Shown: positions 52,759 through 64,000 of the stretch, in pieces | Numbering within the stretch: the stretch's first letter is position 1 | Layout: each line of letters opens with the position of its first letter | Assembly (NCBI GenBank): GCA_019915135.1 | Contig: JAHLMK010000002.1 | Coordinates: 2,852,001-2,916,000, forward strand | Length of the DNA: 64,000 nucleotides | Source: Strobilurus pachycystidiatus | Lineage: Eukaryota > Basidiomycota > Agaricomycetes > Agaricales > Physalacriaceae | Direction: 5' to 3' | The notes under the pieces: generated by a model | Told to the model about the DNA's origin: nothing | Databases searched by the model: none | Seen by the model: only the letters and a program-made list of their open reading frames with translations | Translations under genes and position numbers: made by a program

Positions 52759-54990
52759 TTAGCAACCAGAGGGTACGGCAGTGCTGTCGACATGGTTGGC
52801 AGCGCCGACACCGAGACCACGACTGGCGAAGGCCCTCCAGAGAATACACTTGTTGGCACCGGCGTATCGATTTACGTCGGCTTGGATCCAGGCATCCCGA
52901 GCGGTAGGGACTACAAAACACCATTAGCAACACTCAAGTCTAAGCAGCCCGGTAGACTTACAAGTCGGGTTACAAGGCTGGAGCGCCAGGGCATCAACGA
53001 AGAGGTGAAGCCAGACGTTGTTTCCAGCGGTACCGGTCGGATCGGTCTTGGCAGTCGCAGACCATCCGTGAGCGGAAACGAGCGCGGCGTACACGTTATA
53101 CAGCAGGTTGGCCCAGACCTCGCCGATGTCTGACAACAACATTATGTACGCGTCATAATTTGATGCGCAATGTACTTACTGTGGACTTCATTGAGAGTGG
53201 CAATGCTGGAGTAGCGAAGGGGGTTGATAGTCGCCGATGTGGAGTACGGGTGCGTCCTGATCCCAGCTGTAGAGTTGATGACCCAGCCTCCCAAAGTGTA
53301 GTCCAGCACAGTGGCGCTCTTCTGCTCGGTCCATCTACATAGATGTGTGTCAGCACTCGACTCCCCGGCATCGACAGATCTGAGCATACGCAGCCATGGC
53401 ATCGGACCAGCCCTCACCCATTCCACCGGCTTCGGTGGTCTGCAGACAAGTTCCAGTACCACCGCCAGTGAGCCGGTTCGTCAATCCGTGGGTGAACTCG
53501 TGGACGATAATGTCGTTCTGGAGAGATCCATCCCTGTTGGGGGTGGTTAAAGTCCAGATAAACATCCTGCACGTTCCTGAGGAACCACTGGATGCCGTTG
53601 TCAGTGCCTCACTCAAAAGAAATAAAAAGTTTGTCGCCTACTCGCGAGGTGTGGCAAAGTTGGCATTGTTGGTGCCGCTGGAATCCTGGACGCTCATTAA
53701 GACACGGTCGTTCCCCGCACCGCCCTTTCCAAAGTTGTTGGTCTGGAAGTTGAAAGCACTTTCAGTCCAGCCGTACAGGTAGAGGAAGTCATGAACGGTG
53801 TTGATGATGTAAAACGCGTTGACGCGTGCAGCGTCAACGTTCGATCCCCCAGTGGGTGCCAGCGCGGTATTGTACGTGTAGTCAAAGACACCGGACGATG
53901 ACTGGCTCGTAACGGAGGTCTGACTGCCCTTGAACGCGATAACGTTGTTTCCGCTGTCATACTGATTAGCGCGGTGATGGACAAGAGAATCAGCATGGAC
54001 TCACGCGGTAGTAGTAGTGGTGACCCATCCGCTAGGGGAAGAGGCGGTGTTCTCGGGATTCACGAGGAGTGCCAATCCTTCGGTAACCGCATCTTCTTGT
54101 ATGGGAATGACCCTGTACTGTCAAAGATAACGGTCAGATGGTAGAAGCGATGGAGTATATGTGGAACGCACAGTAAGTTCGGCCACAAAGTCGACTACAC
54201 TCAGGATCTCTCCTGAATGCGCGTCCACATATACCTCAAACCACGCGTTGGTTTCGGCGTTCTGGATCTGAATTGCGTGCGTGAGAGCAACGCTACCGTC
54301 GGCCAACGAGAGATAGTTCAGAGCCGTGAAGCCGTTGAAGTTACCGTCCAGCTGTTCCTCGACGGTTGGGATCACAGAGTCGACTGTAATGGTCGGAGTG
54401 GAGTCGGCGATGTTATCTGCGATTTCGTTAGAAACATGGTACAGAAAGCCAGCATAAACGAACCGGTGTCGACAAAGGAAGCACCGAATGCGACGACCTT
54501 GTTGTCCACGAAGGCAATGTTCGCGACGGCGTTGATGAAGTCGACGCCATCCTTTTGAGTGTCAAATGAAGGAATATGTGCGATACACCTTAACCACTTA
54601 CATGGACCTGCTTCGCATATGCGTAGGTGACGTCCGCAGAATCATGAGAGAAGCCGCTCGTGAATCCGACTTTGTCAACATCGATTCCAAGCTCAGACGC
54701 CACGAAGGCGGTAGTCTTGTCTTCGACGGATTGAGCCACCAGAGATGATGGGAAGGCTTTTCCATCAGTTCCAAACGTCTTTCACCAGTGTTAAGCTACT
54801 TCGATTGATATGCAAGAAAAACAGAACGAACCGTATAGGTTGACTCGGGGTGGAAAGTCTCCAGCCTCAAACCGCGTTTGCCAACGATGCGCGTACGATG
54901 TGTGGCGTGCTTAGAAGACTCCGGGAAGGGAACGGCATGTGTTGACACGGCGAGCAAAACAAAAGACAGGAGCTTGGTGAACGAGACCAT
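52759..54990 (-). CDS. Fungalysin (peptidase M36), copy 2
   Basis: Full-length paralogue of copy 1 on the opposite strand, with the same exon plan. Signal peptide: [20 protein letters not shown]. Prodomain: [20 protein letters not shown]. The zinc site is [10 protein letters not shown], with GGMGEGWSD, and the last exon is [13 protein letters not shown] ... [12 protein letters not shown]. The C-terminus differs from copies 1 and 3, which share DSTVVPDDC. The TATA-like box at 55077-55083 and its flanks match those of copy 1. It appears functional. Confidence 0.9.
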
Positions 54991-56308
54991 CTTTGGAGCT
55001 GTGATTGCGTCTGAAATGGAAAAGACCTCAGATAGAAGGGGAGAGGAAGCCTACAGAAACATGACAATGGCCCAGTTTATGTAGATGAGCAAAGGATACA
55101 GCGTCAACATATTGTCTGTTCAGTGTCCCAGTTCGATATCATGACCTCGTGGATTGAGACGCCGAGGCGTCACAGCCGTGGGTTGCATGTCAGCATAGGA
55201 ATGATTGCAAAGACCGGTTATAGGAAGGCGTTGAGGCCGGTCGTAGAAGGCGAGCGACGCCAAGAGCAAGAAACACGCGCATGGCCAATGCGCGTGCGGT
55301 AAATTGAGTTGGATCGGGCATATGGATCAGTGAAGGTAGTCAGCTTTGGAGCCGTAGCTTCTCAAACAGGTGTCTGACAGAGGAGAACTCGCATCGCAGG
55401 TTGACAGCCCAACGCGCGCCAAGTAGCCGAAAAATGAGAAGATAACGAGATCTTCTTCTCACTGCATGCGCCATGTCACAGATAAGACCAAGTGTATTGA
55501 AGGTCGGACGATTTCCGACGCGAGGTTTTGACCGCCGTCTTCTCGAGCACGTTGAACGAGGTTTGATGATTCAGCGCGACTGGGAGGAAAGCTCCAAACT
55601 TGGAAAGAAAATATGCATCAGATATCAAAGAAGGAAAGGAAAGGGATTACTCGGCACGGTCCCCACAAGGGAAGGCATGCTGCAAGATGGAGGGAAGAAA
55701 GGACAGGATATGGCCGGATCTAGACCCAATGCTTTGTCAGAAGCCACGTGACACGCACAACGTGGCGAAGCTCAGACTGAGACTCTGTGTTCTTTGCAAC
55801 TCCTGGAGACATTAGAGCCAGACACTTCTGTTCTGCTGCGCGTAGAATTCTGAGAGATCCGTCCAGTAGACACGTTTTTCACCACAGGTTACAGCTAATG
55901 TTCTGCTCATTGTGATAACTGCGTCGTGTCTCAATTGTTAGTGACGACGCGTAAGGAATTTCTGGCCGATGAGTGTTACTTCTGAGAAGGTCATCACACT
56001 CAAAGACCCCCAGAATGAGCCGGCGATGGAGGGCATACACGTAGGCTCGGGGGTACTGATTCATTCTTGCGCCGCATGAGTAGACGTCAAACCAATCGCT
56101 TGGATGTTTGGCTTCTCGGCGTAGTCCAGAGGTGGCTTACCATCTTTCAACTGTTCCTAATCCAAATGTTAACACGACGCGCCATTTCCATTCGAACCAC
56201 GACATCTGATTTGGGTCTTCATTCTTCATGTAGTTATACGCCACGATTCAACTGAATACACATAATGTACAGGTACGTCACCAAGTCCGTAGGTTTATCA
56301 TGCCTAAA
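54991..56308. other. 1.3-kb spacer between fungalysins 2 and 3
   Basis: Contains the copy 2 promoter at its left edge and nothing else I can support. Frames at 55473-55815 are Lys/Arg-rich without motifs. Confidence 0.4.
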
Positions 56309-58174
56309 TCAGCAGTCATCTGGAACGACAGTGCTGTCGACATGGTTGGCAGCGCCGACACCAAGCCCACGACTGGCGAATGCTGTCCAGAGGATACATC
56401 TATTCGCACCTCCGTATCGGTTTACGTCGGCTTGTATCCAGGCATCGCGAGCGGTAGGGACTACAGAGTTTCATGAGCGTACGGGCTGAAGATGAACCCT
56501 GTGGACTTACAAGTAGGATTGCAAGGCTGAAGCGCAAGGGCGTCAACAAGAAGATGAAGCCAGACGTTGTTGCCAGCGGTGCCAGTAGGGTCAGTCTTGG
56601 CAGTCTCGGACCATCCGTGAGCAGAGACAAGCGCGGCGTACACGTTGTACAGCAAATTGGCCCAGACCTCGCCGATGTCTGCGGGGTAAGCTTTCGTAAC
56701 TCGACTCGGATGCGTGAATCTCACTCACTGTGTACTTCATTGAGAGTGGCAACGCTGGAGTAGCGAAGGGGGTTGGTAGTCGCCGACGTAGAGTATGGGT
56801 GTGTCCTGATACCAGCTGTAGAGTTGATGACCCAGTCTCCCAAGGTGTAATCAGGCACGTCGGCGCTCTTCTGCTCAGTCCAGCTAGATTGACTATCAGC
56901 ATTCAACTCCCAACAGAGATCAAAATAGCAGAACATACGCAGCCATGGCATCAGACCAGCCCTCGCCCATTCCACCGGCTTCGGTAGTCTGCAGACAAGT
57001 CCCGGTTCCACCGCCAGTAAGTCGGTTCGTCAATCCGTGGGTGAACTCGTGGACGATGATGTCGTTTTGAAGAGATCCATCCCTGTTTGGGGTAGTCAAA
57101 GTCCAGATAAACATCCTGCACGTTCCCGAGGAACCACTGTTGAATGCCGTTGTCAATGCCTCACCCGAAAGAGAAAAAAATAATGCGCCTACTCGCGAGG
57201 TGTAGCAAAGTTCGCATTATTCGTGCCGCTGGAATCCTGAACGCTCATCAGAACACGGTCGTTCCCCGCACCGCCCTTTCCGAAGTTGTCGGTCTGGAAG
57301 TTGAAGGCGCTCTCGGTCCATCCGTACAGGTACAGGAAGTCATGGACCGTGTTGATGATGAAGAATGCGTTGACGCGCGCAGCATCAGTGTTCACGCCGC
57401 CAGTGGGTCCCAGAGTGGTATCATAAGTGTAGTCAAAGACGTCGGGCGACGACTCGGTGGTAACAGAGGTCTGGGTGCCTTTGAACGCGATGACGTTGTT
57501 TCCACTGTAATTCTTGTTAGCGTGTTCCGAGTCCTCGACGCTGAAGACAGCATGGACTCACGCGGTGGTATTAGTGGTCACCCATCCGATGGGGGAGGAG
57601 GCAAGGTTCTCGGGATCTACAAGGAGCGCCAGGCCCTCGGTGACTGCATCTTCCTCAATGGGAATGACCCTGTACTGACAAACATATTAGTTACATAGTA
57701 CAGACGAAGGAAGATGTGTGAAACGCACAGTAAGCTCGGACACGAAATCAACGACACTCAGGATTTTTCCCGAATGTGCGTCCACGTAGACCTCAAACCA
57801 CGCGTTGGTGTCGGCGTTCTGGATTTGGATTGCGTGCGTGAGAGCAACGCTGCCGTCGGCCATCGAGAGGTAATTCAAAGTCGTGAATCCGTTGAATTTC
57901 CCGTCCAGCTGTTCTTCGACGGTTGGGATCACAGAGTCCACACTGATGGTCGGCGTGGAGTCAGCGATGTTATCTGCGATTCCGTGAGAAATACAATATC
58001 AGAGAAGGAAAAGATGAGCGAACCAGTGTCAACAAAGGAAGCACCGAACGCGACGACCTTGTCGTTCACGAAGGCAATGTTTGCGACGGCGTTAATGAAG
58101 TCGACTCCATCCTTGCCGAGTGGTCAGCTCATGGGACATAGACGATACGGCTAGGACACTTACATGAACCTGTG
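56309..58174 (-). pseudogene. 5'-truncated fungalysin, copy 3
   Basis: The sequence matches copy 1 from the C-terminal exon (DSTVVPDDC, stop at 56309) back through the intact zinc site ([19 protein letters not shown]), the prodomain exon [20 protein letters not shown] and the exon [20 protein letters not shown]. The preceding intron is complete. Of the exon before that, only the last nine bases (Gln-Val-His codons) remain. Homology stops at 58174. The signal peptide and the first two exons are missing, so no secreted enzyme can be made as it stands. The remaining exons show no stop or frameshift that I can see, so the truncation is recent. Confidence 0.85.
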
Positions 58175-58994
58175 TACGCAACCCCGCGAGTTCGACAAGA
58201 AATAGCTGCGAAAGCAGCGGTTTCGCGGGAGGCTTCGCAAACAGCGAATCGGCGGCGGCTAAGGTAGTGGGGGACAAAGGCGAACTCCGCGAGAGGCGGC
58301 GATACGACCGCGAATAGTCAAAGAGTAGAATAGAACAACAGCGAGCACCACTCGTTGTGTATGAAAACTTGACTGGAGACCGCGACTTCACGAACTCACG
58401 CTGAACCGTATGGTGGTCAAAAGTGAAGTCTTCATTCTCCCCGCTCAGTGCTATATCAAGTCGCGGCTTCGCTTGCCGGTTCTACTACGATTACCCGCCC
58501 GTTCCTGAGTATCCGCGCGACAACGCGGTCACCCGCAGGCGTGGAACCTTCCTTGCCCTGCCCGTTCTGCCGCTACCTGCCAAGGTAAACACTTGGCAAG
58601 GTCCGATTACGCCACCCGCCCGTGGTACCCGGTCGGCCCGCTTCCTATGGATCGCAAGGTTCTGCAGTGGACCGTGTCTGAAAGACCGTCTAAACTGTTT
58701 GGTTTCCGCGGTTTACCTGCGAGCGTCCTCGAGCGAGCCCGCGACCCTGGTGGTACCTGCGAAAGGTCCGCTGGGTCCCTGGTTCCCGCGGTTTACCTGC
58801 GAGCGTCCGCGAGCGAGTCCGCGATCATGGTGGTACCCGCGAGAGGTCCGCAGGATCCGAGTTACAGCTGGGGCGATCGTATCGCGCCCACGCTGTACAT
58901 CTCCCCCCAACCAAAAATTTCCAACCCTCCAGTCCTTCTAGAATGTGGCGCCCAGATAAAAGCGGGCAAGCGCGGCACCAAATCCCAACTCAAA
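58175..58994. other. CGCG-rich DNA abutting the fungalysin breakpoint
   Basis: Begins TGTACGCAACCCCGCGAG immediately at the breakpoint. CGCG and GCGAG motifs recur throughout, unlike the rest of the window. A hairpin TGCCAAG-gtaaaca-CTTGGCA lies at 58578-58598. A GATAAAA box at 58955-58961 precedes the next gene by 40 bp. The opening TG would suit an LTR end, but I could not find the matching CA end or a primer-binding site. Confidence 0.55.
58701..58860. repeat. 80-bp tandem repeat, two copies
   Basis: Unit 1 (58701-58780) and unit 2 (58781-58860) start GGTTTCCGCG and GGTTCCCGCG, and both continue GTTTACCTGCGAGCGTCC. They differ at only about a dozen sites. 80 is not a multiple of 3, which argues against a coding role although a frame stays open. 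Confidence 0.85.
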
Positions 58995-59693
58995 ATGGTC
59001 CTCACGTTATACGACACGCCGAGTCAAGTCCCTTCCAACCGCCGCGCTCGGGCACCCCCTCCTCCGAACCTCCGCTACTCCCCTAGCATCTACTCCGAAG
59101 CATCCGCGTCCAACCTGCGGATCGTCCACGCCGCCGCTGGCTTCATCCTCCGGCACGCACCCAGCGCCGACCTCTATCTCCGCCTCCACGGGGAAGGCCT
59201 CACTGATGCGGACATGAAGACGCTTGACGATCTCCTCGGTGCCGCTGACCTGATGCGCGCGCGGAAACGCGTAGCACGCGAGCGTGGGTACAGCGAGTAC
59301 GATACCTTCGAGGCGGAGAATGTTGTCCAGCGGGTCACCGAGGCCGTAACGGGGACCGCCTGGAAACCTGCCTACGGGCGGTTGAAGAACGGGCCCCTCC
59401 TCCGCCAGCGCGCGGCCGAGAGGCACTCGCTACACATGCAGCTACTCGGACTGTTTGACTTCATCCCGACATCAGGCGTCTTCCTGTATTCCGCGAGGCA
59501 TGGTGAAGTGCACTACCACACCCGCGGCCGGAACGGTGCCCCCGACGCGAGCGAGGGTGTGGACGCTCTGGAGATAGCTGATTACGGCGGCACAGAGGAA
59601 GACATGGTTAACATCGCCAGCGCGATGGCCCAATTTACCGAAGAAGAGGGCGCACTAGAGGAAACCTGCGTCCATGACATGACGTCCGGTTGA
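58995..59693 (+). CDS. Cassette gene 1: uncharacterised protein
   Basis: 232 residues, single exon, from ATG 58995, the first ATG after a TATA-like box. The open frame extends upstream through the 80-bp repeats, but I consider that non-coding. Pro-rich N-terminus (SNRRARAPPPPNLRYSPSIY), then helical sequence (RIVHAAAGFILRHAPSADLY, ADLMRARKRVARERGYSEYD) and FDFIPTSGVFLYSARHGEVH. Acidic C-terminus. No family recognised. GC-rich with codon use like the following three genes and unlike the rest of the window. Confidence 0.6.
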   Translation: MVLTLYDTPSQVPSNRRARAPPPPNLRYSPSIYSEASASNLRIVHAAAGFILRHAPSADLYLRLHGEGLTDADMKTLDDLLGAADLMRARKRVARERGYSEYDTFEAENVVQRVTEAVTGTAWKPAYGRLKNGPLLRQRAAERHSLHMQLLGLFDFIPTSGVFLYSARHGEVHYHTRGRNGAPDASEGVDALEIADYGGTEEDMVNIASAMAQFTEEEGALEETCVHDMTSG

Positions 59694-59887
59694 TCCGGGA
59701 GGAGCAAGTGGAAAAGGAGGGTCCGGGGAACGGGAAGAGCTTCCTAGGAACCTGTAGCCAGTAGTACACGCATGGCGAATGATAGAGAGATTGCGCGGAC
59801 GGGAAGAGCTCCCGCAACGCATCGGTACCCATGACCAATTTCGTGCTATCGCAGTCCCCATCTCGGCCATCGATAACAGCCGCGGCC

Positions 59888-59894
59888 TATAAAA
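59888..59894 (+). promoter_or_regulatory. TATA box of cassette gene 2
   Basis: TATAAAA exactly 40 bp before ATG 59928. Gene 1 has GATAAAA at the same distance from its ATG. Confidence 0.6.
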
Positions 59895-59927
59895 CAAGGA
59901 ATCCTTCCTCGCAAACAACCTATCGCG

Positions 59928-60895
59928 ATGTCCGACCCCAATGCGTACCAAACACTGCTCGCCGCTGCCCAGGCCGAGTTGGACCTCATCCTGAGCACTG
60001 CAGGCACACCTGGCGACACGGGTAGCCCGCCTGTGGACCACATCAACCCCGCCCATGCCACCTTCTACTTCCCCAGCGATCCCTTATTCGAAGCCCGCCG
60101 GGACCTGTTCCCGCTTCCCCAGGAAGGGGTCGAATACGGCACTCCCGGCTGGGGGCGCATGACTTCCGCCGCGTCCACCCTCAACTTGACGAAGATGGCG
60201 GAGACACTTCTACTCCTAAGGACCGCCATTGGCGCCTTCAACTATTCTCACTCCCGCGAGACCATCCCCACCCCTCCCACGGAGACGTCTATCTCCCAGC
60301 TCCTCGTCATCCTCGACCTCGGTAGCGTATACCATGCCAAAGCGATGAAAGCTGCGCAGTCGGGGTGGTGCGTCCCCGACACCACCGCGTTTTACGCGAC
60401 CATGGCGAGCTTCCTAAACCACGTCACTGCTCCAGGTGGCTACCGGGGAACATACGCGCGCGTCCCGCGGCATGGCAGCCGGCTCGCGCATTTAGCAGCT
60501 GCGCGGGCTGACAAGGATGCCACCATCGCCGCTGTGAAGAGGCAGCAATCCCTAGTGATTAATGCCGAACGGCGCCGCGCCCGCGGGGAAGACGTTCCTC
60601 CTCGCCCCCTCACACCTCGTGAGCCTCAACCTGCCCTCCTTTCCTCTCTTGTCACCCTAACCCCCCCCCCCCCCCCCCTTCTGCTGCATACTTGGCAGCT
60701 CCAGCACTCGAGAACGCGTGTGACTTCTGCGCAAGCGCCAACCACCATAGCGAATGCCTCCATCGCGACGCCACCTTCAATATCGCGCAGTACGCCTCCG
60801 GGCTCGCCAACCAGGACGCCGGGTGGCAGGATCGAGAAAGTGATGCGGACTGGGGCGTATATGAGACGTTGGATGGGTACTCAGGGTCCGGGTAG
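59928..60895 (+). CDS. Cassette gene 2: gag-like protein with zinc-knuckle-type motif
   Basis: 295 residues from exons 59928-60618 and 60699-60895 (888 nt, in frame). The intron (80 nt) has a GTGAGC donor, a CTAAC branch site, an unbroken run of 18 C and a GGCAG acceptor. Without splicing the frame runs into Pro-rich nonsense. With it the C-terminus reads PALENACDFCASANHHSECL, a CX2CX4HX3C pattern close to the retroviral CCHC knuckle (CX2CX4HX4C). The N-terminal part is helical (NAYQTLLAAAQAELDLIL, LTKMAETLLLLRTAIGAF) with a Lys/Arg stretch. The layout recalls a gag protein, but no capsid homology is visible to me. Confidence 0.6.
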
Positions 60896-61179
60896 TCAAG
60901 TCAGAGGCGCGCGCCACACTATAATACCACCCGCCCCGTAGACCTAAAGAAAGAAAAACAATGTTCCCTCGCCCATATCCCACTTCCATGCCGCCGCACA
61001 CCAATTGTGGAGCCATCGAGCGCCGGCTCCCAGCTCGGGCACGAAAGTTACTTCGAAAGTTTAATCGGCAGATCGCAGATCCATGACTCATGAAAGAGTA
61101 AGGAACGCCGGGCAGAAGCCCGGGGAGGGGCGTGAAATGGAAAATTTTCTCTTCAAGTTCTCTCTCTCCCTCCAACATC
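60896..61179. other. Spacer between cassette genes 2 and 3
   Basis: 284 bp. No clear TATA box. A pyrimidine-rich leader (TCTCTCTCCCTCC) directly precedes ATG 61180. Confidence 0.45.
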
Positions 61180-63462
61180 ATGCTCGCCGACTCCGACCCA
61201 CCGCCGGACGCTGTCGAGATTCCCGAGCCATCGGAGGAGGACATCCAGACCACGCGATCTATCCTGCTCTCAAAGTGCGGCAAATACCAACACGCGCTGG
61301 AAGGCCTTAGCGGGCGCGCAGGGGATGGGACAGCGGCCACGCTAGAGACTGCGAAGAGTTTCCTAACCACGTTAGTGAGGTGGTCGGTGAGTCTCCCCCC
61401 TCGCCTCTGTATCTTGGTTCGTACACAAGCGTCCTTCTGACTCACTTCTTCTTTTTGCGCAGGGGAAATATGTCGACAAGATGGTCCACCAGGCGGGCGC
61501 CCCAGCGGATCCGGAGTCCGTCAACAAACGACGCGGAGTAGCCTTGCGTCGCGTCGCGCTGGTGGGCCAGCAAATCCTCCCCCCCATGCTAGCGGACTTC
61601 TTCGATGCGAGCTGGTTCGGACTCTGCGGTCAATTCTTCCAGGCCGAACTGAACGCCGCGAGCTCGAAACACGCCTTGGATGTGGACATGTTTTGGGAAG
61701 GGGAAGACGACGATGACGAAGACGCCGAAGGCGGTTCCCGCGCGGATGCGCACCCCATTGCAGTCAAAACCGAGCCCGAAGACACCTCGCTGGACGTCGC
61801 GTCCGCCGCCGAGCACGCTCATTCCTCCAGTTCCTCCCCCCCCAGCCCGGCTGGCCTTCCCCAGTCCATTCCTGCTTCAGCCAAAGAACCAGCATCGTCC
61901 GCGACTCCACGGCCCAGGCCCATTCCTCTGGGGAAGCCTCCCGCCCGACCCACACCCAATGTACCAACCGTTGCACCTTCAAACATCTCGGTCCACTCTC
62001 CCGGGCCCGATCCTGCCCCCCACAACTTCTCTCAAAGCCCTGGTCTCCAAAGGATGGGGTCTGAGACTCCCACCGCGGTAGGGAACCGCCTCGTCCCACT
62101 TCGCCCTGAACTGACTTACGCGGAATGGAAGGAGGTTTCCAAGAGCGCCCCCCCCGCACTTCGCCGTAGGCACCGACCCTGCCGAAACTGGAACCTCCCT
62201 CCTCGACACCGGCCCAGGGAACGATTCCCACAACCGCGAGTACATAGGTACCCCCCGTCCAATCTCCGCCACTGAAAAAGGGAAGGAGCGCGAACTACCA
62301 ACCGCCGCATTTCCCGAAGACCGCGAAACCGGCGACGATGACGAAGTGAAACCCAAATCCCACCGCCGGCGAGGGCCGAAGGACTCTCACGGCAAGTCTC
62401 ATCTCTCCACCCTCCTCCGCTCCCCCACACTCATCCCCCCCCCCTTCCCCCCCCCAGGTACGTGGTCCGACGAGAAACTCCTCGGAGCCGGTGTAGACGT
62501 GAATGACGCCGAGCGGGGCAATGAGGCTACCGCCCTCGCCGCTTACGACCTGGGTCTGCTACAGGTGATCCCGTTTCTCGTTCCCCTCTCTAACCTCCCT
62601 CCTGACCGTTCACCAGCTCGCGAGCCCGGCGTGCAAAGCGTGCGGGAACACCCGCAGCGCCAAAGGAAAACCCCGGCTATGCCTTCTACCTGCTGATCCG
62701 CGACGAGCGATTGGCTGCTTTTACTGCCGCCACCAACGTTCCCGGTGTTCTTTCATGGGCCCAAAGGCGACCACAAAAACCGCCAAGTCGGCGACCAAAT
62801 CCGGTACCGCGCCCTTCAAACCCGCGGGCCACCCTTCTCACAAAGCCACCCCTCATCTCTCTTCAACCGCGGAATCCTCCACCGTCCCCCGCACCCGTCT
62901 CCAATCCAGCGCCATTCCCGACGCCCGCTTCAAACAAGGTCAAGCTGAACTTGACATGATCGTTGGGGCCCGTATAGCTGAAAACGAGTGGTCCGGCGAT
63001 CTCTTCCTAGATCTGGGCTCCCCCCATCTCGCCGCGCACCTTTCCACCCTCCTTCGCGCTTACGACATGGAAATTTGCCACCTGCATAGCGTCGACCGGC
63101 AGATCGCCGCGCTGCAAGATGAGCGCTCATCGCTCGCCGACCACCTCACATTGCTGGTCGATCGGGTCCACACCATCCTCTCGCAACTGGAAACCTTGGA
63201 GGGCGAAAGCCGGGACCAGGATGCTTCCGCGAGCGACGAGAGCGACGAGGAGGACCGCGAAGACCAGGCTAAACCCATCAAGAAAACTCGCGGCAAGGGG
63301 AACCGGAAGGAACCCGACAGCGAAGTGGAAGTCATCGAAAGTCCCGGCCCTTCAGTTCCGCGAAAACGCTCGCGTGTTGTTGAGAAGGAAGTGGAGGGAG
63401 AGAGCGGGGACGACAGCAGCGTTGAAGAGGTCCCGCCTAAAAGCAAGAAACTCCGCGTGTAG
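61180..63462 (+). CDS. Cassette gene 3: zinc-cluster coiled-coil protein (one frame break)
   Basis: Exons 61180-61386, 61463-62391, 62458-62564 and 62617-63462. The sum is 2089 nt, one more than a whole frame. Deleting one C from the run of eight at about 62148-62155 restores a single frame of 695 residues (SKSAPP-HFAVGTDPAETG). Intron 2 uses a GC donor (GGCAAGT). The N-terminus is helical (TTRSILLSKCGKYQHALEGL), then acidic (EGEDDDDEDAEGG) and Pro/Ser-rich. Exon 4 opens with a Cys cluster (ACKACGNTRSAKGKPRLC, then GCFYCRHQRSRCSF), a coiled coil (ICHLHSVDRQIAALQDERSS), then acidic and basic tails (PPKSKKLRV). Probably a nuclear DNA- or RNA-binding protein. Whether the extra C is real or an assembly error is unknown. 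Confidence 0.6.
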
Positions 63463-63688
63463 GTACATCCCCCCCCCCCTTTTTCTTGTAGAGTACATCC
63501 TCCCCTGTAACACTTGTGCGCATGTCCAAAAAAAAAACAAACTTTTTCTTGATCCACCCTCCGGCCGAGTGAAAAGACGGGACGCCTGGGCCGACTTATG
63601 TCACCCGGCCACGTTCCCAACCGTATATAAGAAGGGAAGGAGACGGGGAGTCGCACTCTTGCCTTTCTCCTCCCCCCCCAAAACTTGA
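63463..63688 (+). promoter_or_regulatory. Spacer with TATA box before cassette gene 4
   Basis: TATATAA at 63624-63630, 59 bp before the ATG at 63689, followed by a pyrimidine-rich leader (CTTTCTCCTCCCCCC). Runs of C and A make the spacer low in complexity. Confidence 0.5.
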
Positions 63689-64000
63689 ATGCAAAACCCC
63701 GAGACCAATCCCGTCATACGCCACCAGCGTGACGGCTATCTATGGGATAGATACGACACCAGCGCCGCGTGGGCCACCCGTACCATGGAGTACGCGGGCT
63801 TGGACCCCATGAGTCCACGGAACGAGACCTGGGAACGCCGGGTCGAGATCGGGCTCAAGCAAGGCATCCTATTCGTGCGCTCTATCCCACAGCCGCGCTC
63901 ACGCCTGACATCATGCCCAGAACCGGGAACCCAAATGCGCCGGTTGCGAGGGAACCGCCCACCAATGTCTTACGCCAATAGTCCCCGACAGCATCCCACT
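63689..64000 (+). CDS. Cassette gene 4: partial uncharacterised protein
   Basis: Starts MQNPETNPVIRHQRDGYLWD and stays open for 104 codons to the window edge. It contains TRTMEYAGLDPMSPRNETWE and IGLKQGILFVRSIPQPRS. An intron after LFVRS is possible because another frame is also open there. No family recognised. The same strand, spacing and promoter style as genes 1-3 make it part of the cassette. Confidence 0.5.
   Translation, partial: MQNPETNPVIRHQRDGYLWDRYDTSAAWATRTMEYAGLDPMSPRNETWERRVEIGLKQGILFVRSIPQPRSRLTSCPEPGTQMRRLRGNRPPMSYANSPRQHPT

What the first reader, a model, noticed from the sequence alone, without database searches (positions are those of the whole stretch)
58175..64000. Compact four-gene cassette of unknown families, likely part of a mobile element
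Four same-strand genes sit 226-284 bp apart, GC-rich and unlike the rest of the window. Genes 1, 2 and 4 have TATA-like boxes 40-59 bp before the ATG. One protein ends in a near-CCHC knuckle and another has a Cys cluster plus coiled coil. None belongs to a family I recognise. The left edge is sharp. The combination resembles the accessory gene set of a large transposon or a gag-like module, but reverse transcriptase, integrase or transposase is not in view and would have to lie to the right.
Basis: partly seen in the sequence, partly recalled or inferred. Interest (0 to 1): 0.88.

Follow-up and report, generated by a model that had tools for sequence, protein, structure and literature searches.

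The report
Fungal retrotransposon with four antisense genes
The four unknown genes are a conserved accessory set carried on the reverse strand of a 14-kb, recently inserted LTR retrotransposon, so this jumping element probably makes its own regulatory proteins from the strand opposite its copying genes.

Summary
The sharp left edge is the outer end of a 727-bp LTR; an identical LTR lies 13.3 kb to the right, beyond the window. They bound a 13,990-bp Ty3/gypsy-type element with a 4-bp target-site duplication. The four genes (aA-aD) are thus antisense genes between pol and the 3' LTR. The same four, in the same order, occur in six elements of three divergent lineages in this genome. dN/dS is 0.24-0.33 for three pieces of aC. 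They form two pairs: aA resembles aB; aC resembles aD (six-Cys cluster, predicted coiled coil, an intron just before the cluster). Antisense introns can persist in a retroelement because they are not splice signals in its genomic RNA. A more distant, larger gypsy family here carries two comparable Cys-cluster genes in sense orientation. Antisense ORFs in this position are known in plant Grande/RIRE2/Retand and in fungal Boty; a spliced, duplicated four-gene antisense set appears to be a new variant of that kind. A nuclear regulatory role is inferred, not shown.

The parts
58169..58172 (.). Target-site duplication CCTG (partner copy after the other LTR, outside the window)
58173..58899 (-). 3' LTR (727 bp, TG...CA), identical to the 5' LTR at C2:2923436-2924162
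58900..58914 (-). Purine-rich tract next to the 3' LTR (polypurine-tract candidate)
58995..59693 (+).
59928..60895 (+). Antisense gene aB; inferred exons 59928-60618 and 60699-60895; C-x2-C-x5-H-x2-C near the C-terminus
61180..63462 (+). Antisense gene aC; inferred exons 61180-61386, 61463-62564, 62617-63462. In this copy the frame is broken within exon 2 relative to the C40/C6 copy; not mended
62632..62748 (+). Six-Cys cluster of aC, C-x2-C-x12-C-x11-C-x2-C-x6-C
63689..64000 (+). Antisense gene aD; exon 1 63689-63874, exon 2 from 63921 to about 64421 (beyond the window); its six-Cys cluster starts at 63936
56923..58172 (-). Part of an M36 fungalysin-like host gene left of the insertion (its start lies right of the element)

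Best explanation
Window 58173-64000 is the 3' part of a 13,990-bp Ty3/gypsy-type LTR retrotransposon on the minus strand. It contains four protein-coding genes on the strand opposite gag-pol (shown). They are kept by selection (shown for aC, supported for aA and aB), form two paralogous pairs (supported) and are spliced (inferred from conserved intron boundaries). Inferred mechanism: the genes are transcribed by RNA polymerase II from promoters just inside the 3' LTR and between genes; their introns survive reverse transcription because they lie on the strand complementary to the genomic RNA; aC and aD are nuclear, metal-binding, coiled-coil, probably dimeric regulators that act on the element's own transcription or silencing, in the manner of the antisense gene HBZ of HTLV-1; aA and aB are their partners or act in the same pathway. 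Odds by step: anatomy 0.95, coding antisense genes 0.95, nuclear regulator role 0.45.
For: LTR pair, TSD, gag and pol on the minus strand. The same four genes in the same order in the C2, C20 and C1 lineages and intact in mapping to C13, C9 and C2:1347k apart from one gapped codon and one new stop. dN/dS 0.245, 0.33 and 0.245 for three aC pieces and 0.22 for 49 codons of aD. Pairs aA-aB (probability 88.5) and aC-aD (80.1) by hhalign, the other eight pairings 0.0-0.7. Phase-0 intron 5-8 residues before the Cys cluster of aC and aD in all three lineages. NLS-like basic stretches at the C-terminus of aC. TATAWA 6 of 14 against 0.5 expected.
Against: No transcript, protein or structure data. Sequence profiles match no family above cut-off and no solved DNA-binding domain. 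aC has no TATAWA in any of four copies. In this copy aC has a broken frame. C20 against C9 shows 5 synonymous and 6 nonsynonymous changes, no sign of selection in that small sample.
Confidence: 0.65

Rival explanations
1. Self-restraint rather than self-activation: the antisense transcripts or proteins lower the element's own copying (as Ty1 p22 or dsRNA silencing would), so the genes are a copy-number control.
For: The intact copies are few: six loci with the genes against about 21 places for the sister family's ORF1. Antisense transcription over the 3' part could make dsRNA (argued for plants in PMC7264820, passages).
Against: aA-aD show no similarity to gag, whereas p22 is a Gag fragment (recalled). 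Coding selection means a pure RNA effect is not enough. Nothing here separates activation from repression.
Confidence: 0.2
2. Transduced host genes: passengers picked up by one retrotransposon.
For: The genes have introns like host genes.
Against: Protein searches matched only element loci; the set is shared by three divergent lineages. Host copies in other species were not searchable here.
Confidence: 0.06
3. A second mobile element nested in the gypsy element, which became part of it.
For: Opposite orientation, own promoters and higher content of short genes; the C40/C6 remnant has the genes without gag-pol.
Against: The place and order are the same in three lineages; no transposase-like gene among aA-aD. 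Terminal repeats of such an element were not searched for. As the ancient origin of the block it is not excluded.
Confidence: 0.08
4. The ORFs are chance readings of a conserved non-coding antisense region.
For: Long ORFs are easier by chance at 61% GC.
Against: Third-position excess and dN/dS 0.22-0.33 between C2 and C40, 7 of 8 coding gaps in multiples of three, exons better conserved than spacers.
Confidence: 0.02

Closest known systems
Plant Ty3/gypsy elements with antisense ORFs between pol and 3' LTR: Grande (gene23), RIRE2, Retand (TRP28), PvRetro13 (PMC7264820, passages seen; PMC11963269, abstract, Background and Discussion seen)
   Same: Same place and orientation, long pol-3'LTR region, proteins without clear relatives, some reported nuclear; a regulatory role is proposed there.
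   Different: Here a fungus; four genes in two paralogous pairs, with conserved introns and six-Cys clusters. No sequence comparison with TRP28 or gene23 was made here.
Boty / BcGypsy1 of Botrytis cinerea with the antisense gene brtn (Zhao 2011, known only through citations in PMC7264820 and PMC8365987, passages seen)
   Same: Fungal gypsy-type element with an antisense additional gene downstream of pol.
   Different: One gene is described there.
HTLV-1 HBZ (passage in PMC11963269 Background)
   Same: Antisense gene near the 3' LTR; nuclear protein with a dimerising helix (leucine zipper recalled).
   Different: HBZ is one gene in a retrovirus; no sequence relation is claimed.
Fungal Zn(2)-Cys(6) cluster (PF00172) and DUF3716 (PF12511)
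   Same: Six cysteines with a second half C-x2-C-x6-C, followed by a predicted coiled coil.
   Different: Scores far below cut-off: 8.6 against 21 and 11.2 against 22; first-half spacing varies from x6 to x12.

Membership tests
Ty3/gypsy LTR retrotransposon (the carrier) | Identical or near-identical LTRs with TG...CA ends and short TSD | tested here: met
   727 of 727 identical, CCTG TSD; the same in C20, C9, C13 with their own 4-bp TSDs
Ty3/gypsy LTR retrotransposon (the carrier) | Protease-RT-RNase H-integrase in this order | tested here: met
   Protease domains in gag; RVT_1 at 313-403 (below cut-off), RT_RNaseH at 557-688, Integrase_H2C2 at 842-898; no integrase core model reported
Ty3/gypsy LTR retrotransposon (the carrier) | tRNA primer site and polypurine tract | tested here: inconclusive
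   TGG-starting site 2 nt after the 5' LTR and a purine tract before the 3' LTR; its 13-mer complement has 138 matches in the genome against 4 for a control, but the tRNA was not identified: 0 of 11 sampled matches is a tRNA gene
LTR element with conserved antisense ORFs between pol and 3' LTR (aORF-3R) | ORFs antisense to pol in that place, in most copies | tested here: met
   6 of 8 loci with pol at 68% identity or more
Fungal Zn2Cys6 binuclear cluster (PF00172) | Score above the curated cut-off | tested here: not met
   best 8.6 bits against 21 among nine proteins scanned; a sister-family ORF 10.8
   hhalign probability 0.0-0.5 with the element's own gag; no Pfam gag match. Fold comparison could not be run
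HBZ-like antisense regulator | Antisense transcript, nuclear protein, action on LTR transcription | not testable with these tools
   needs RNA and protein experiments

The most novel reading that the evidence does not exclude
Giant gypsy elements of this fungal group carry a dedicated regulatory gene set built around paired Cys-cluster coiled-coil nuclear proteins, and this set has been turned round relative to gag-pol between families: antisense and intron-bearing in the 14-kb family, sense and without the intron before the Cys cluster in the 20-kb family. Orientation would then decide whether a retroelement's accessory genes can keep introns and their own promoters: a multi-gene fungal counterpart of HBZ-type antisense regulation.
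Probability: 0.3. Interest if true: 0.8.

Novelty: new variant of a known kind. Interest (0 to 1): 0.6.

Why it matters
Antisense ORFs of LTR elements have been noted for years without a known function, mostly in plants and once in a fungus. A four-gene, duplicated, intron-bearing antisense set under coding selection, in elements whose LTRs are identical and which are therefore probably young, makes the question of what these genes do testable in a fungus. A related family with comparable genes in sense is a natural experiment on orientation, introns and expression.

Tried and rejected
Host-gene cassette: disfavoured; protein searches matched only element loci. Gag-like module: not supported. 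Zn2Cys6 membership: not met. Relatives elsewhere: three protein-database searches gave 1, 2 and 0 proteins; the last two scored only the roughly 8,000 candidates sharing most words; the hits come from contigs without names, and no fungal genome collection was at hand, so the spread over other fungi is untested. PDB profile searches: 50 matches for aD, best E 0.0075, mostly to long helical proteins and coiled coils, and one at E 1.3 for aB. tRNA primer: not identified. Host species: not determined. Structure prediction: not available. Papers: nine answered searches; among the listed titles and abstract starts I saw no basidiomycete LTR element with antisense genes; the library lacks most subscription papers and I read only passages or sections of four papers (PMC11963269, PMC7264820, PMC8365987, PMC5408684).
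Full report
WHAT IS THERE. The window is G000:C2:2852001-2916000 of an unnamed 51.8-Mb genome. A DNA search with window 58175-61175 found its first 728 bases again, at 100%, on the same strand 13.3 kb to the right. Extension gives a 727-bp identical direct repeat, window 58173-58899 and C2:2923436-2924162, with TG...CA ends and CCTG on both sides. The element is C2:2910173-2924162, 13,990 bp. Its minus strand encodes gag with DUF4100 and an aspartyl protease (L010:3481-6402) and pol (L010:2-3487, continuing into the window's right-hand neighbourhood) with RNase H and integrase zinc domains above cut-off and a weak RT match. The four genes lie between pol and the 3' LTR on the opposite strand.

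GENE MODELS. aA 58995-59693; aB 59928-60895, one inferred intron; aC 61180-63462, two inferred introns; aD 63689 to about 64421, one inferred intron. None reaches a Pfam or NCBIfam cut-off. aC and aD each have a six-Cys cluster. A pattern written after seeing these clusters finds two hits in each of the C2 and C20 elements and in the antisense half of the C1 element (its gag-pol half was not held), one in the C40 remnant, and none in window 1-58000. The coiled coil is judged from sequence, without a structure. aC ends in basic, NLS-like stretches. In C20 and C1 the start of aD is uncertain, since P0002 also matches upstream.

RECURRENCE. Searches with aB, aC and aD, and DNA or local searches covering aA, matched only at C2 (this element), C20, C13, C9, C2:1347k, C1:3530k and a remnant at C6:1123-1138k that is repeated at 99.9% on contig C40. 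C20, C13, C9 and C2:1347k are about 98-99% alike. LTR pairs are identical in C2, C20, C9 and C13, each with its own 4-bp TSD, and 99.4% identical in C1, so these insertions look young. The order aA-aB-aC-aD is the same in the C2, C20 and C1 lineages. Nine pol matches at 68% identity or more stand for eight loci, if the two C2:1354k/1368k pieces are one split element (only 40 of 411 candidates were scored). Six of the eight have the antisense genes. C1:5275k lacks them (LTR to LTR about 10.4 kb, pol also cut short); no match was listed at C3:498k, whose pol has stops. The C40/C6 remnant has the opposite loss: aC and the start of aD run into an LTR, without gag-pol. Pol is 74-77% identical between lineages and gag 41%, but the antisense proteins of C2 and C20 only about 23-40% over the aligned parts: they change much faster.

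SELECTION. C2 against C40: dN 0.172, 0.173, 0.116 and dS 0.701, 0.525, 0.473 for three aC pieces (exon 2 only up to the frame break); aD exon 1, 49 codons, 0.103 and 0.478. Of eight gaps in coding parts, seven are multiples of three; the eighth is the frame break in exon 2 of the C2 copy. By the final exon model, exon stretches are 73-85% identical, the two introns 68 and 73%, spacers 61 and 68% (features regrouped; the least conserved exon stretches are no better than the better intron). C20 against C1: aA and aB pieces dN 0.37-0.44, dS 1.1-2.9; the aC (0.889/1.499) and aD comparisons are saturated and say little. Within the C20 group, synonymous and nonsynonymous changes over about 990 and 3,030 sites are 8 and 5 (C2:1347k), 5 and 6 (C9, one of them a new stop), 6 and 3 (C13, plus one gapped codon).

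TWO PAIRS AND THEIR INTRONS. hhalign of small profiles: aA-aB probability 88.5, E 2.7e-6, 117 columns; aC-aD 80.1, E 1.4e-5, 39 columns; the other eight pairings, gag included, 0.0-0.7 (the aA profile holds two sequences only). In all three lineages aC and aD have a predicted phase-0 intron 5 to 8 residues before the first cysteine. aA of C20 and C1 and aB of C20 have an intron that the C2 copies lack, so introns have been gained or lost.

WHY ANTISENSE INTRONS CAN PERSIST (inference). New copies are made from the sense genomic RNA. An antisense GT-AG intron reads CT-AC there and is not removed; an intron in a sense gene would be lost.

A SECOND FAMILY. Pol matches at about 53% with a 1304-aa frame belong to another family. 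In one copy, identical LTRs of at least 1,064 bp bound at least 19.6 kb (C2:1282500-1302075). Its ORF1 has 22 matches at 21 places. For the 14 copies whose pol is also listed, ORF1 is in the orientation of pol, 1,858-1,899 bp after the pol match in 13 and 2,343 bp in one (counted by hand). Beside it in the copy read are two sense ORFs with six-Cys clusters and charged helical tails. These two are related to each other (BLASTP E 3e-14). Their combined profile resembles aD weakly (E 2.8e-4, probability 41; reversed decoys 0.41) and aC hardly (E 0.03; decoy 0.33); part of the aD match is coiled coil, so homology is only suggested. Their Cys clusters lie more than 100 codons inside open frames, so the intron of aC and aD is not evident there. 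Minus-strand ORFs also lie near the 3' LTR of that family.

FUNCTION. Shown: the element, the antisense placement, recurrence in order, coding selection on aC. Supported: pairing by paralogy, selection on aA and aB. Inferred: transcription from internal promoters, splicing, nuclear location, metal binding, regulation. Printed reasoning for plant elements points the same way (PMC11963269 Discussion; PMC7264820 passages) and is also unproven.

NOVELTY. Antisense ORFs in this place are known in plants and in Boty. What appears new, within the nine literature searches named in Tried and rejected, is a set of four, in two pairs, with introns, and comparable genes in sense in a second family of the same genome.

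Noticed in passing
C2:1282500-1302075 (L059, L060, L062-L064): A second gypsy family of at least 19.6 kb with identical LTRs and about 21 places of its ORF1; two sense Cys-cluster ORFs after pol and minus-strand ORFs near the 3' LTR.
   Followed up: partly
window 56923-58172 (-) and L010:7164-7601 (-): The element sits in an M36 fungalysin-like gene: metallopeptidase pieces lie left of it (PF02128); the right-hand piece has no Pfam hit but resembles by eye the start of a second fungalysin-like copy near window 54500-55050. The flanks were not joined.
   Followed up: partly
aA and aB of C20, C1 and C2 elements: Introns present in some lineages and precisely absent in others; precise loss would be simplest if antisense mRNA were itself sometimes reverse-transcribed.
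   Followed up: no
C40:70000-87000 and C6:1122000-1139000: A 99.9% duplicate of about 16 kb holding a gag-pol-less remnant of the family; the small contig C40 may be an alternative haplotype or an assembly duplicate.
   Followed up: no
whole genome G000: The 13-base primer-site complement CTCGCGGTGGGCT has 138 matches against 4 for the control; the places sampled look like primer sites of LTR elements.
   Followed up: partly
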